Notes: a model not told the origin generated them from the sequence alone. DNA of 64,000 nucleotides from Candidatus Nitrosocosmicus franklandus (GCF_900696045.1 NZ_LR216287.1:744001-808000); one strand, 5' to 3'. Shown: positions 12,168 to 41,119, counted from the stretch's first letter. Program-made: numbers and translations.

Positions 12168-12437
12168 ATGTCTAAAGAGAATAAATCACCAATATTTATG
12201 GCAGTAATTGCTATTTCTGCATTTTTGGTTGCAGGATCACTTGTAGTAGGCTTGAATGACCAAATTGTCTTTGCATATAAGAAATCGGATTCGGCTGCAC
12301 AAGGTCTCTCACAAGAGGAATCTTCAGGTCAATCTAGTTCAGTGCTATCCGAGAATGGAACCAGCACCGCATCAGGCAACAATCTCGACTTTTCGCTAAA
12401 CCTTAACGACGGGCAGAATGCATTAGCCCAACAATAA
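12168..12437 (+). CDS. Short secreted QQ-family protein, member A (89 aa)
   Basis: From ATG 12168 (MSKENKSPIFMAVIAIS...) there is a signal peptide ending near QIVFAYK. The mature part is Ser/Gln/Asn-rich and closes with ASGNNLDFSLNLND then GQNALAQQ and a stop. The same ending occurs in the next gene and at 14877, so these are paralogues. A GTG eight codons upstream is possible but would bury the basic N-terminus of the signal peptide. No Cys is present. Function unknown; an exported, possibly self-associating surface protein is inferred from composition. Confidence 0.65.
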   Translation: MSKENKSPIFMAVIAISAFLVAGSLVVGLNDQIVFAYKKSDSAAQGLSQEESSGQSSSVLSENGTSTASGNNLDFSLNLNDGQNALAQQ

Positions 12438-12826
12438 CCATATTTTTTCCCAAATCATAGTTCTAAAGATTGTAGTTAATTTGAAGCCTTATCCTAACTA
12501 GTGCTAAGAAATATTGGTATCTTGAAAGCTAATTTCTACGGGGTTTCAGTTTCCCTTGATCACTTAGGCTGTTATGCAAAATATTGTCTTGCAAAAGTGT
12601 TAATCCATTCAACTTTGACTTTTATTTAATCTTGATCTAATACCTAAACAATCATTAACAAAAGCTACAAGTAACGATGATGAGACATTATTTATTCCCT
12701 CACATTAAAGGCTAATAAATAAACATTCTGTAAAACTATTCTAAATTTATCGTGTAGAACTAAATATCATAAGGATCTTAAAAAATTATTATATCGTATA
12801 TTATTGCAAAATAAATAGAAAGCAAA

Positions 12827-13192
12827 ATGTACAGGTCAAATAATATGAAAAAGACTGCAGTACTAATGGTAGCTGTATTAGCAACGATTTTGATAATGGG
12901 ACCAGGGATTTCGGGTGTTGGCGACGCCTTAGCAAAGCAAAAGTATGATGATTGGGATGAATGCAGAGACGATCACAGTAGCAAATGGTGTAAAAAATAC
13001 TTCAAGGACCGTGATGACGATGATGACGATGATGACGATGGAGGTAACAGAGCATCACAAGCTATTGGACAATCACAATCCTCAAGTCAAAATAGTCAAG
13101 TAGTGTCAGGTGGCGATAGCATAGGTTCTGGTAATAACTTTAACTTCCAAAATCAAGTAAACAGCGGAAATAATGCATTAGCCCAACAATAA
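12827..13192 (+). CDS. Short secreted QQ-family protein, member B (121 aa) with Asp run
   Basis: Signal peptide (MKKTAVLMVAVLATILIMG from the internal Met at 12845; the ATG at 12827 fits a leaderless start after GTATATTA at about 12797). After cleavage near DALAKQ comes a Cys-containing segment (two Cys), then an eight-Asp run encoded by GAT/GAC repeats (13015-13040), then the family tail: Gln/Ser-rich, VVSGGDSIGSGNNFNF, GNNALAQQ, stop. The Asp run suggests calcium or other cation binding outside the cell. It lies about 390 bases after member A, with its own promoter. Confidence 0.65.
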   Translation: MYRSNNMKKTAVLMVAVLATILIMGPGISGVGDALAKQKYDDWDECRDDHSSKWCKKYFKDRDDDDDDDDDGGNRASQAIGQSQSSSQNSQVVSGGDSIGSGNNFNFQNQVNSGNNALAQQ

Positions 13193-13276
13193 TCTCATTT
13201 TTTTAATCCGTAAGAAATCAAATTTTTTCAAGAAATCAAACATATAAAATATAATGAAATTCATACAATATTACAG

Positions 13277-13618
13277 TTGAAAACATCTGATCTCTGTACT
13301 CTAATTCAAAAATCTTTTCAATCCCAAAAATATCCATTATCTTCAGATACCGAAAAGGAATTGTCATCATCTGTTAGAGTCATAAACAAATCGGCCACGG
13401 ACAATCTCAAAGACGAAAACACAATTATTGAAACAAGAATAAACGAGTTTTATGTAATCAATAATTATGATCCCACAATTACCCACTTGGCTGGCATGAT
13501 AGAAATGGATTGCCTTGATTCATTTAAGATGCTTTGTAGGCGTATAGAGCGAAAATCAGAAAGCAATCATACAGCGCATATCTCCATAAAAACATCCAAC
13601 GTCAAACAAGAAGATTAA
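13277..13618 (+). CDS. Hypothetical protein (113 aa)
   Basis: TTG start about 29 bases after an AT-rich CATATAAAATATAATG promoter-like stretch. The protein is soluble, Ser/Lys/Glu-rich in the first half, with FYVINNYDPTITHLAG and a Cys-containing helix (SFKMLCRRIERKSES) later. No domain is recognised. It sits between the QQ-family genes and two regulators. It has good amino-acid balance but could not be assigned. Confidence 0.5.
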   Translation: MKTSDLCTLIQKSFQSQKYPLSSDTEKELSSSVRVINKSATDNLKDENTIIETRINEFYVINNYDPTITHLAGMIEMDCLDSFKMLCRRIERKSESNHTAHISIKTSNVKQED

Positions 13619-13757
13619 CCAATTATTTTTGTCCAGAGGGACGGCATGGTCATTAAAACAAAAGGCTGTGGATACGATTTGCTAATAGACTAGATTTTGG
13701 TTACAAAGATCAGAGAAGAAGATAAGAAAAACTATGAGATTAAAAATGATATAATGG

Positions 13758-14066
13758 TCAGCTTGTTGTTTTATAATTGCGTGTAGGAGTTGCAAGCAAT
13801 TCCTCGATTTCGTTATTCATCTTTAAGAACATTAGACCCTTTTGAGTCGTTTTGTACTCTGATCCTTCCATGTATTCGATGAGATCATTTTCAATCAATA
13901 CCGAAAGATATTCCTTTAATTGTGCATAGCTAAGAAAAGCCTTGTACATTATTTTTGTCTTGGTTGCACCACCATTTGCTGCATCTAATATCATAGCTAC
14001 GATTTCGGTTCGGCTTCTATATTTCATATATACTCTATATACATCACTAGTATATAACCGATACAA
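13758..14066 (-). CDS. Archaeal winged-helix transcriptional regulator
   Basis: 102 aa, or 89 aa from the internal Met at 14027 (MKYRSRTEIVAMILDAANGG), the more likely start because family members begin there. It shows the one-domain winged helix common in Nitrososphaeria (HTH_45-like): ATKTKIMYKAFLSYAQLKEY as helix-turn-helix, then LIENDLIEYMEGSEYKTTQKG as the wing, and a final helix. Such proteins bind DNA as dimers. Targets are unknown. It is divergent from the HxlR-type gene, with about 150 bases between the two starts, so either protein may control this shared promoter zone. Confidence 0.8.
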   Translation of the reverse strand: MYRLYTSDVYRVYMKYRSRTEIVAMILDAANGGATKTKIMYKAFLSYAQLKEYLSVLIENDLIEYMEGSEYKTTQKGLMFLKMNNEIEELLATPTRNYKTTS

Positions 14067-14213
14067 TTGATAATTCCAATTAGCTATTGCAATTATATTG
14101 ACTTTTGATATTATTTATAGAGACATCAGATTATTCCTTAATAATTACCTACTATAAAATACATGAGATATACAAAATATATTATAAGAACAAGCAAGGA
14201 AATAAAAATATAG

Positions 14214-14720
14214 TTGTTTCACAAAAATGATGATTTAGAGATCAAAGAAAACGGTGGATACGATAGTGAATGTATAGTAAAACCGCAAATCAAGATAATT
14301 AATTGTCCCATCCGAACAACCTTGGGAGTATTGGGGAAAAAGTGGACTATGCTTATTATAAGAGACATTGGTTTTTTAAAGATAAACAGATTTAATCGAA
14401 TTCTTGAGTCAATTCCAGGTCTAACCCCAAGGGTATTATCAATGCGCCTTAGAGAACTCGAAAAAGAAGGGATCATTCGCAGTACTCAAATTAAAAGAGA
14501 ACAAACCATGATTCTTTGGAGCTTGACCGAAAAAGGTAAGGACATTTTACCAATTTTATTGATGCTAACTGCTTTTGGATCAAAGTGGTATTCTGAATAT
14601 GTATTTGAGGATAAAAAACCAAGAAGATTGGATGAAGTATTTTCATTACCCGAGACAAAGGAAACAATAACGGAGTATACCAAGCGATTAAGTTTTGATC
14701 ATACATTTCCGAACAAGTGA
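14214..14720 (+). CDS. HxlR-family transcriptional regulator
   Basis: 168 aa, TTG start. Core HxlR signature: CPIRTTLGVLGKKWTMLIIRD, then FNRILESIPGLTPRVLSMRLRELEKEG (recognition helix), then WSLTEKGKDILPILLMLTAF. The Cys at the family position is present, the residue that senses redox or electrophiles in some HxlR proteins. The C-terminal 40 residues are an extension beyond the usual domain. It is divergently placed to a winged-helix gene and upstream of a secreted QQ-family gene, which may be among its targets (inference). Confidence 0.88.
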   Translation: MFHKNDDLEIKENGGYDSECIVKPQIKIINCPIRTTLGVLGKKWTMLIIRDIGFLKINRFNRILESIPGLTPRVLSMRLRELEKEGIIRSTQIKREQTMILWSLTEKGKDILPILLMLTAFGSKWYSEYVFEDKKPRRLDEVFSLPETKETITEYTKRLSFDHTFPNK

Positions 14721-14876
14721 CCATTTCAGTTTTGTTCTTTTGTCATAGACCGCTTCAGAAAAACTAATAGAATTATTTACTGTAATTCAATACCGTTAAC
14801 CAATTACAAAATAAAAATCAAGTAACAAGTTTCCAAACTATGATATAATTAATTTCGATTATACATTTCGATTAGA

Positions 14877-15146
14877 ATGAGCAACATAACAAAAAACTAT
14901 AAGGTCGGAGTATTTGCAATGTTTATTGCAGCAGTCTTAATTGGTTCAGTAGTAGCCCTAGGTGATAACTATGCATACGCTGGTGGAAAGAAGAAACACA
15001 ATGACGCAGAACAAGAAATCGAACAAGGTCAAGCTAGCGAGCAGAACTCACAATGTGTATCTGGAGACTTCTCATTGATCTGTGGAAATAATCTGAACTT
15101 ACAGTTGCAAAACCAATTAGGTAACTTGGCATTAGGCCAACAATAA
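14877..15146 (+). CDS. Short secreted QQ-family protein, member C (89 aa)
   Basis: MSNITKNYKVGVFAMFIAA begins a signal peptide ending near NYAYAGG. The mature protein is about 50 residues: AEQEIEQGQASEQNSQCVSG, a short loop with a second Cys, GNNLNLQLQNQLGN, LALGQQ, stop. The two Cys flank the loop and could pair. Gly-Asn-Asn before alternating polar/hydrophobic residues, and the Gln-Gln end, are shared with members A and B. It has a T-run terminator and probably its own promoter (TGATATAATT near 14845). Confidence 0.7.
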   Translation: MSNITKNYKVGVFAMFIAAVLIGSVVALGDNYAYAGGKKKHNDAEQEIEQGQASEQNSQCVSGDFSLICGNNLNLQLQNQLGNLALGQQ

Positions 15147-19031: not shown

Positions 19032-20168
19032 ATGGATGACAATATGAAACCTGATTGGAAAGGCTGGGTTGCATCATCACGCGATCATATAGACCCCAAT
19101 GTAGCTCCATTAGAAGTATTTGCTCTAGGTATAAAAATTCCTAATTTAAGTAAAGAAAGTCTCAAGTCAAACCTTCAGGTCTTTAGAAATGAAAGTGTAT
19201 CAGATCCTCACCCACAGTCCTCAAGTTTTGTAGACAACGGGTTTCTTTTAATAGGTGGGGGGTTTCTTGTACCCGACCAACCACCGGGTGGAGGAAATAT
19301 AGGTACTGGTTCGTTCCCAGATTCAAATATTTCATGGCATGCACGTTCCAGAGATCACCAAATTCCTAGTCCTTCAAGGATTATATCCTTTGCAATAGGG
19401 ATTCGTTCTACTTTAAGAAAACTAGATGGAACAAAAGTCGGAACAATTAGCACATCTTTTCATAGTTCTGAAGGCTTTGATAATGCTTTCACAGCAGTTT
19501 CTCCGTTGCCGGGTATGGCGTTATGCGGGATGGGCGGTGCCTGTCACTTTGGTTTTCATGGAACTTATCTTACTAGAATAGTGCCTCAATTACTACCCGT
19601 TGATAATCCAACTCATCAGTTTGCTATTGTAGATAATCTTTCCATTTACGGTTCAAGTGGCGACCATACCGAACTGGTGAGTCGTACTGCATATGCCATG
19701 GGACTTAAATTCAACCCCTTGCCATTTGATCCTCTACCTCCCCCTATAGATCCTATTGTACTCTGTAACAAGGAAATAATTGCAAGTGAAGCTGATTCTA
19801 GTGGACACCTGTCCGGCAATAATGCTTTAAAAACCATTGACAGAATACCAGCTACAACGTGGGTATCTACCAATATTCCTAATCCTTGGATTCGATTAAC
19901 CTTACCTAATCAAGTATCGATTTGCAGGGTTGATGTGTTGTGGGGAGATGAAAAACCACATATTTTTAATTTATCCACCTCAACTGATGGTAATACATTT
20001 GTTGATGTATATCCTGAGTTTATAACTAGAAACGGGACCAGTACAGATGATTTTGAATCCTATTACTTTGCTTCGAGGGTTGCTACCGATATCAAATTGA
20101 CATTTGCACAAATAGGGCCATTTGGTACCGTTGCAGTAATAAAAGAGGTGAGAATCTTCACTAAGTAG
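19032..20168 (+). CDS. Repeat-module protein with C-terminal F5/8-type C (discoidin) domain
   Basis: 378 aa from the internal ATG. The true N-terminus probably lies upstream across a frame break. Three related modules can be read: WVASSRDH...FALGIK (about residues 15-40), WHARSRDH...FAIGIR (about 100-125) and YGSSGDH...YAMGLK (about 208-230), each preceded by a Gly-rich segment and a strand. Residues about 245-378 form a discoidin/F5-8C beta sandwich (SEADSSGHLSGNNALKTIDR, TTWVST, PWIRLTLP, CRVDVLW, IKEVRIFTK), which usually binds sugars. No signal peptide is seen in either part, so export is uncertain. Carbohydrate binding is likely from the domain; the SRDH module is unassigned. Confidence 0.75.
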   Translation: MDDNMKPDWKGWVASSRDHIDPNVAPLEVFALGIKIPNLSKESLKSNLQVFRNESVSDPHPQSSSFVDNGFLLIGGGFLVPDQPPGGGNIGTGSFPDSNISWHARSRDHQIPSPSRIISFAIGIRSTLRKLDGTKVGTISTSFHSSEGFDNAFTAVSPLPGMALCGMGGACHFGFHGTYLTRIVPQLLPVDNPTHQFAIVDNLSIYGSSGDHTELVSRTAYAMGLKFNPLPFDPLPPPIDPIVLCNKEIIASEADSSGHLSGNNALKTIDRIPATTWVSTNIPNPWIRLTLPNQVSICRVDVLWGDEKPHIFNLSTSTDGNTFVDVYPEFITRNGTSTDDFESYYFASRVATDIKLTFAQIGPFGTVAVIKEVRIFTK

Positions 20169-24413: not shown

Positions 24414-24737
24414 CTATTGGGGTGCAGGTAGGGTAGAATCTGTTGGAGGCTGGTCAAAGGTCGGGATACATTCACCATTCTCTTGCAAGCCCAAATTGAG
24501 GTTATTTGCATTTAATGCATTGAATTCTGGTGCAACTGCTTGTCCATCAGCCTCTGATGCTTGGCCTTGTTCTACTTCTTGTTCTGCATCGCTATTAGGT
24601 TGTTGACCAGCTGCGATATTTCCGCAGGCTTCCACCCCGGGACGCTCAAGAATTGAGGCAAATGCATTGGGTACATATACACCTATGAGTCCGACTGCTA
24701 GGAAAACTGAAAGGATTCCTACAAATGATTTATTCAT
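24414..24737 (-). CDS. Short secreted QQ-family relative, member D (107 aa)
   Basis: A signal peptide (MNKSFVGILSVFLAVGLIG, cleavage near AFAS), then a mature part containing DAEQEVEQGQASEADGQAV, ANNLNLGLQENGE. The block up to NNLNL matches member C (14877) almost residue for residue. The C-terminus differs: instead of ALGQQ it has a Pro-rich tail with Cys. Two Cys overall are placed to pair. It lies about 9.5 kb from the other three, showing the family is dispersed. Confidence 0.65.
   Translation of the reverse strand: MNKSFVGILSVFLAVGLIGVYVPNAFASILERPGVEACGNIAAGQQPNSDAEQEVEQGQASEADGQAVAPEFNALNANNLNLGLQENGECIPTFDQPPTDSTLPAPQ

Positions 24738-39889: not shown

Positions 39890-41119
<1,230 letters not shown>

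What the first reader, a model, noticed from the sequence alone, without database searches (positions are those of the whole stretch)
12168..15146. A clustered family of tiny secreted proteins ending in Gln-Gln
Three genes (12168, 12827, 14877) and a relative at 24414 share a signal peptide, a Gln/Ser-rich stretch (QGQASEQNSQ and variants), a V-S-G turn, G-N-N-[LF]-[ND]-[FL], and, in three, the exact ending N-x-A-L-[AG]-Q-Q before the stop. The ending GN-x-AL-x-Q resembles the curlin repeat of bacterial amyloid fibres. Each protein carries only one such unit, so self-assembly from single-repeat subunits is a testable idea. I know no described role for them.
Basis: partly seen in the sequence, partly recalled or inferred. 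Interest (0 to 1): 0.65.

Follow-up and report, generated by a model that had tools for sequence, protein, structure and literature searches.

The report
Archaeal secreted 48-residue repeat family
The three or four tiny secreted proteins belong to a large, undescribed family found only in the soil archaeon genus Nitrosocosmicus; it is built from a strict 48-residue, disulfide-stapled building block that looks designed to stack into amyloid-like surface or biofilm fibres, which would fill a gap because these cells have no S-layer.

Summary
The window proteins each hold one copy of a gapless 48-residue unit, N-x-A-x-Q-x-I-x-Q-x-Q-x-S-x-Q-N-x-x-[C/V]-V-S-G-x6-[C/G]-N-N-x-N-x-Q-x-Q-x-N-x-G-N-N-A-x-A-Q. 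The host genome encodes about 35 such proteins with 73 full units, 1 to 9 per protein, joined by short Gly/Asp linkers. The family occurs in 15 of 15 genomes of the genus and in 1 doubtful MAG among 385 other Nitrososphaeria. It matches no Pfam, NCBIfam or PDB sequence. It is under strong purifying selection, alternates conserved/variable residues (beta-strand pattern) and is nearly proline-free. Two cysteines are all-or-none (166 pairs, 147 without, no lone Cys), implying a disulfide across the turn. Best explanation: disulfide-stapled two-strand beta-arch units stack, within and between molecules, into cross-beta extracellular fibres or matrix of these S-layer-less, aggregating cells. Assembly is inferred: the AlphaFold model of a 5-unit protein is low-confidence (pLDDT 58) and a single unit does not fold. 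The curlin resemblance is analogy only (hhalign probability 2%); the design is closer to Pseudomonas FapC, also without sequence homology.

The parts
12168..12437 (+). Single-unit secreted protein, 89 aa (divergent unit, V/G type, one extra residue)
   Evidence: dN/dS 0.14-0.27 against orthologues
12288..12434 (+). its repeat unit (49 residues, ends at the stop codon)
12827..13192 (+). Single-unit secreted protein, 121 aa, with D-rich spacer before the unit
   Evidence: dN/dS 0.07-0.16 against most orthologues
13046..13189 (+). its 48-residue repeat unit (V19/G29 type), ends at the stop codon
14877..15146 (+). Single-unit secreted protein, 89 aa, Cys pair present; five close paralogues in the genome
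   Evidence: 91-94% identical to its closest orthologues with dN/dS 0.03-0.05
15000..15143 (+). its 48-residue repeat unit (C19/C28 type), ends at the stop codon
24414..24737 (-). Marginal relative, 107 aa, partial unit and different C-terminus
24471..24596 (-). its partial unit
13277..13618 (+). Conserved orphan gene inside the syntenic cluster, no Pfam match; not part of the family
13758..14066 (-). HTH_45 winged-helix protein inside the cluster; possible regulator, role untested
14214..14720 (+). HxlR-family regulator inside the cluster, conserved in synteny; possible regulator of 14877, untested

Best explanation
This is a Nitrosocosmicus-specific family of Sec-exported extracellular structural proteins. 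Shown from sequence: a 48-residue unit, 1-10 copies per protein, short flexible linkers, a hydrophobic leader and no membrane anchor. Inferred: each unit is a beta-arch or hairpin of two strands of about 18-20 residues (unit residues 1-20 and 29-48) with a tight turn at 21-28, its conserved Asn/Gln/Ser/Ala/Ile side chains on one face in the register i+j=48, and in half of the units a C19-C29 disulfide closing the turn. Inferred: units stack in register, within multi-unit proteins and between molecules, with Asn/Gln ladders, giving cross-beta (functional-amyloid-like) fibres or a felt around the cell. Multi-unit proteins would act as pre-joined stacks and single-unit proteins (as in the window) as free subunits, caps or growth-limiting pieces. 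Divergent units fused to collagen-like, beta-helix and beta-propeller domains would dock other surface proteins into this matrix. The product would be part of the hair-like surface layer or EPS by which these S-layer-less cells aggregate and form biofilm.
For: Repeat and copy number: (own genome about 35 distinct proteins, 73 full units). Beta alternation: mean entropy 0.41 vs 2.56 bits for odd vs even columns in strand 1, 0.64 vs 2.48 in strand 2; 5 prolines in 15,024 unit residues; N+S+Q make up 52%. Disulfide: 164 C19/C29 + 2 C19/C28, 147 without Cys, 0 lone Cys in 313 distinct units; Fisher p 2.6e-89; strongest covarying pair. Register: 11-37 and 13-35 also covary on i+j=48 (permutation 33 of 2000 without the Cys pair). 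AlphaFold on a 5-unit protein gives two long strands per unit, ten in all; one unit alone stays unfolded. Secretion: 133 of 137 proteins have a hydrophobic segment before the first unit, 2 of 137 one after it; 109 of 141 ORFs end exactly at a unit end. Selection: dN/dS 0.03-0.27 for most orthologue pairs. Distribution matches the genus that lacks S-layer and adhesin genes; papers PMC11559005 (no S-layer, ~18 nm wall, ~30 nm hair-like filaments of unknown composition) and PMC12448741 (aggregation-first biofilm, attachment mechanism unclear). Fusions to collagen-like, NosD-type and propeller domains.
Against: No experiment. The AlphaFold model is low confidence (pLDDT 58, pTM 0.42) and finds no significant fold match; failure of a single unit to fold may only reflect a poor alignment. 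Covariation beyond the Cys pair is weak, and the antidiagonal sum 44 is as strong as 48 once the Cys pair is removed. No dedicated secretion, nucleator or chaperone genes lie beside the genes, unlike curli or Fap operons. The units have few large hydrophobics. No VKOR was found in the genome, so the route of disulfide formation is unknown. Surface location and expression are untested.
Confidence: 0.55

Rival explanations
1. Ordered but non-amyloid coat: units fold as discrete small beta domains on flexible strings (beads on a string) forming a soluble or lattice-like glycocalyx, adhesin or S-layer substitute, without cross-beta polymerisation.
For: Linkers vary from 4 to 31 residues and are Gly/Asp/Lys-rich, which suits independent domains; the disulfide would stabilise a small domain; PMC11559005 proposes a glycocalyx for this genus.
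Against: Few core hydrophobics and conserved faces made of Asn/Gln do not suit an isolated 48-residue domain; AlphaFold leaves a single unit unstructured; N-glycosylation sequons are depleted in units (0.57 vs 1.77 per shuffled unit). Linker variability is also found in amyloid-forming FapC (PMC12392863).
Confidence: 0.25
2. Ice- or mineral-binding beta-solenoid: flat arrays of regularly spaced polar side chains bind ice or mineral surfaces in soil.
For: Regular polar i,i+2 arrays; the non-significant Foldseek list includes two kinds of ice-binding protein.
Against: The conserved face is Asn/Gln, not the Thr ladder usual in ice-binding solenoids (own knowledge); the family is in every genome of the genus with dozens of paralogues; fold matches not significant.
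Confidence: 0.05
3. Secreted antagonistic or signalling peptides (bacteriocin-like), diversified by duplication; single units are the active form.
For: Small secreted Cys-paired products, many paralogues; sub-threshold NCBIfam match to the sublancin glycopeptide family for one protein (24.3 bits against a cut-off of 40).
Against: The match is below cut-off and is explained by Gly/Ser/Cys composition; strong purifying rather than diversifying selection; multi-unit forms with linkers; no adjacent immunity, processing or export genes; half the units lack Cys.
Confidence: 0.04
4. Low-complexity bias or a neutral repeat without structural role.
For: Asn/Gln/Ser make up half of the unit; recent near-identical duplications exist.
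Against: Shuffled controls fail; dN/dS well below 1; all-or-none Cys pairs and unit length fixed at 48 in the great majority of matches.
Confidence: 0.01

Closest known systems
FapC/FapB functional amyloid of Pseudomonas (fixed-length 38-39 residue imperfect repeats)
   Same: Repeats of fixed length, conserved Asn/Gln/Gly, separated by linkers of variable length; each repeat forms one cross-beta layer in the solved fibre (PMC12392863). Same design logic.
   Different: No sequence match: a profile of our units finds no PDB chain at E<=10 although FapC (9u4u) is a solved structure. 48 not 38-39 residues, 1-10 units rather than mostly 3, Cys pair inside the unit, dozens of stand-alone genes rather than one operon, archaeal.
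Curlin (CsgA/CsgB), Pfam PF07012
   Same: Secreted Asn/Gln/Ser/Gly-rich repeats; the tail Q-x-N-x-G-N-N-A resembles Q-x-G-x-x-N-x-A of the curlin repeat.
   Different: hhalign probability 2.2% over 9 columns; PF07012 not over cut-off; unit twice as long; no csg genes nearby; no Cys in the E. coli curlin repeats.
Archaeal amyloid-like sheath proteins (Methanospirillum SH, PMC10593813)
   Same: Extracellular amyloid-like protein of an archaeal envelope.
   Different: Known here from title and abstract only; forms a sheath cylinder in a methanogen; our unit profile matched no PDB sequence.
S-layer proteins of other ammonia-oxidising archaea
   Same: Would occupy the same place (outermost protein layer).
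   Different: Nitrosocosmicus lacks them (PMC11559005); the repeat family is found in this genus and not in the other genera.

Membership tests
Curli (CsgA/CsgB) | Curlin repeat S-x5-Q-x-G-x2-N-x-A-x3-Q (PF07012) | tested here: not met
   No hit over cut-off in the genome; hhalign probability 2.2%
Curli (CsgA/CsgB) | csg operons with dedicated secretion channel and chaperones next to the subunit genes | tested here: not met
   No recurrent neighbour gene beside own-genome members, read by eye from ORFs
Curli (CsgA/CsgB) | Forms cross-beta extracellular fibres | not testable with these tools
   needs purified protein
Fap (FapB/FapC) | FapBC repeat homology (39 positions) | tested here: not met
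   Profile of units matches no PDB chain at E<=10; the FapBC HMM itself was not available
Fap (FapB/FapC) | Fixed-length Asn/Gln/Gly-conserved repeats with variable linkers | tested here: met
   522 matches are exactly 48 residues; linkers 4-31 residues; this is likeness of design, not membership
Fap (FapB/FapC) | fapABCDEF operon | tested here: not met
   Stand-alone genes
Functional amyloids in general | Self-assembly into cross-beta fibres with a physiological role | not testable with these tools
   AlphaFold low confidence only
Any described family in Pfam or NCBIfam | Match over curated cut-off for the unit | tested here: not met
   (only the NosD/beta-helix part of one fused protein passes)

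The most novel reading that the evidence does not exclude
A new archaeal class of functional amyloid with a disulfide-stapled, possibly redox-controlled beta-arch unit, expanded to dozens of genes in one genus as the replacement for the lost S-layer; single-unit paralogues tune or cap fibres made by multi-unit ones, and fused units anchor collagen-like and other domains in the coat.
Probability: 0.3. Interest if true: 0.9.

Novelty: new variant of a known kind. Interest (0 to 1): 0.72.

Why it matters
What covers Nitrosocosmicus cells and how they aggregate are stated open questions: they lack S-layer genes and known adhesins, yet show hair-like surface filaments and the strongest biofilms among the ammonia oxidisers compared (PMC11559005, PMC12448741). 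A genus-wide, heavily duplicated, purifyingly selected secreted repeat family is a concrete, testable candidate. If it forms cross-beta fibres it would be an archaeal functional amyloid unrelated in sequence to curli or Fap, with a built-in disulfide, and a ready source of natural single-unit and multi-unit variants for studying how repeat number controls assembly.

Tried and rejected
Curlin membership by Pfam family search and profile-profile alignment: negative. PDB sequence search with one protein and with the unit profile: nothing at E<=1 and E<=10. Foldseek of the 5-unit model: no hit below E 0.067, TM below 0.2; the listed solenoids, CsgA and FapC are not evidence. AlphaFold of a single window unit: no structure. 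Sublancin, HfaA, RAMP4 and DUF3379 matches: all below cut-off, attributed to composition or signal peptide. Viral contigs: no relative. Gene-neighbourhood search for a secretion or nucleator partner: no recurrent neighbour. N-glycoprotein scaffold: sequons depleted in units. Literature: no paper found that describes the family; the library holds open-access papers only and supplements could not be read.

Full report
WHAT WAS CHECKED. A profile of the four against the host genome (one 2.836 Mb contig; relatives named point to Nitrosocosmicus, and the size suggests N. franklandianus, an inference) returned 84 matches, not four, including nine strong single-unit genes and tandem arrays in ORFs of 162 to 679 codons. 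A refined profile gave 65 gapless 48-residue units in 28 ORFs, 59 distinct; a later tally gives 35 distinct proteins with 73 full units. The largest array (666 aa, 9 units, acidic tail) lies about 1 kb upstream of the window. A profile trained only on other species and tested against shuffles shows the window proteins are true members, 24414 only marginally.

ANATOMY. A typical member is a hydrophobic leader, a short charged or Asp-rich spacer, 1 to 10 units joined by linkers of median 8 residues (51% Gly, 19% Asp), and a stop exactly at the end of the last unit (109 of 141 ORFs); 133 of 137 have the leader, 2 of 137 a later hydrophobic segment. Within units, odd positions of residues 1-15 and 31-41 are nearly invariant (N, A, Q, I, Q, Q, S, Q; N, N/S, Q, Q, N, G) and even positions are free: 0.41 vs 2.56 and 0.64 vs 2.48 bits. 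Prolines are 5 in 15,024 residues. This is what a long beta-strand with one buried or stacked face looks like.

THE CYSTEINE PAIR. Of 313 distinct units, 164 have C19 and C29, two have C19 and C28 (the 14877 type), 147 have none, mostly V19/G29, and none has a single Cys. The pair is also the strongest covarying pair. Shared inheritance inflates the p-value, but the total absence of lone Cys across many paralogues and species is hard to explain without a disulfide. In multi-unit proteins the Cys-bearing units come first (35 of 51 two-unit proteins are Cys then non-Cys; CCvv, CCvvv and Cvv are common), and only 2 of 141 proteins have an odd number of Cys from the first unit on. How the disulfide is made is open: no VKOR was found.

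STRUCTURE. AlphaFold2 on a 5-unit protein from another species gave two strands of about 20 residues per unit with a short turn at the expected place, ten strands in all, at low confidence (pLDDT 58, pTM 0.42). The single window unit gave no structure (pLDDT 48). Weak extra covariation falls on the hairpin/arch register i+j=48 (11-37, 13-35), permutation 33 of 2000, but the register 44 scores as high without the Cys pair. Foldseek finds nothing significant. I treat the two-strand unit as likely, the stacking as plausible, and the exact fold as unknown.

EVOLUTION. The window cluster is syntenic in several other species of the genus. Orthologous genes show dN/dS of 0.03-0.05 for the closest orthologues of 14877 (91-94% identical), about 0.07-0.16 for 12827 and 0.14-0.27 for 12168. 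Synonymous sites are near saturation in some pairs, so these are approximate, but all indicate purifying selection. Three two-unit copies in the host genome are 99.4-99.6% identical over 531-1421 bp, so the family is still duplicating.

DISTRIBUTION. Among 385 other Nitrososphaeria genomes in 81 genera one has it, a 4.0 Mb MAG with 4% contamination whose short repeat-bearing contig resembles Nitrosocosmicus DNA; contamination is likely but not proven. Among 398 genomes drawn from the phylum only members of the genus match. A scan of genome contigs of 84,980 species returned only Nitrosocosmicus records and a MAG labelled Nitrosopumilus that appears to be one of the 15 genus genomes (inference from matching loci). 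That scan used exact peptide patterns and would miss distant relatives.

CONTEXT IN BIOLOGY. Published work finds no S-layer or adhesin genes in Nitrosocosmicus, a thick wall with about 30 nm hair-like structures of unknown nature (PMC11559005), and fast aggregation-first biofilm with an unknown attachment mechanism (PMC12448741). The family is present exactly in this genus. This is a correlation on one branch of the tree, so it cannot by itself show function. Divergent units fused to collagen-like, beta-helix (NosD-type) and beta-propeller domains fit a matrix-docking role.

COMPARISON WITH KNOWN SYSTEMS. The curlin likeness is limited to Q-x3-G-N-x-A. FapC is the closest design analogue: fixed-length Asn/Gln repeats, variable linkers, one cross-beta layer per repeat (PMC12392863); but sequence homology was not found. 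So: works like a functional amyloid (inferred), member of neither family.

VERDICT. Real, large, undescribed in the libraries searched, and specific to one genus. Extracellular structural role about 0.75 likely; cross-beta self-assembly about 0.55.

Noticed in passing
genome 740952-742949 (-), about 1 kb before window position 1 (L033): The largest own-genome member, 666 aa with 9 units and a C-terminal Ser-Gly-Asp-Asn/Asp-rich acidic tail.
   Followed up: partly
genome 44655-45257 (+) (L045) and 2167092-2167712 (+) (L040): Secreted proteins with an N-terminal partial unit followed by a collagen-like Gly-X-Y stretch (GPPGPEGPPGP, GPQGPAGPQ) in an archaeon.
   Followed up: partly
genome 456000-457019 (+) (L039): Secreted protein with one unit at its N-terminus and a NosD-type right-handed beta-helix.
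   Followed up: partly
genome 930021-930743 (+) (L041): Divergent secreted protein with four near-identical 45-residue repeats QNSKCEAGEDNNNSCNN..., keeping the Cys pair but not the rest of the unit.
   Followed up: no
genome 1097852, 1117782, 2469572 (L023, L024, L025): Three two-unit genes 99.4-99.6% identical over 531-1421 bp at separate places: recent duplication or gene conversion.
   Followed up: partly
window 39890-41119 (+): Weakly plastocyanin-like secreted protein with long poly-Gln/QP tracts; not a member of the family.
   Followed up: partly
window 13758-14066 (-) and 14214-14720 (+): HTH_45 and HxlR-type regulators between the family genes, the HxlR one kept in synteny; possible regulators of surface composition.
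   Followed up: partly
window 19032-20168 (+): 378-aa protein with a C-terminal F5/8 type C (discoidin-like) domain just under the cut-off.
   Followed up: no
G059:C89 (L080): Repeat-bearing contig in a MAG of another genus (4% contamination); probably misbinned Nitrosocosmicus DNA, not settled.
   Followed up: partly
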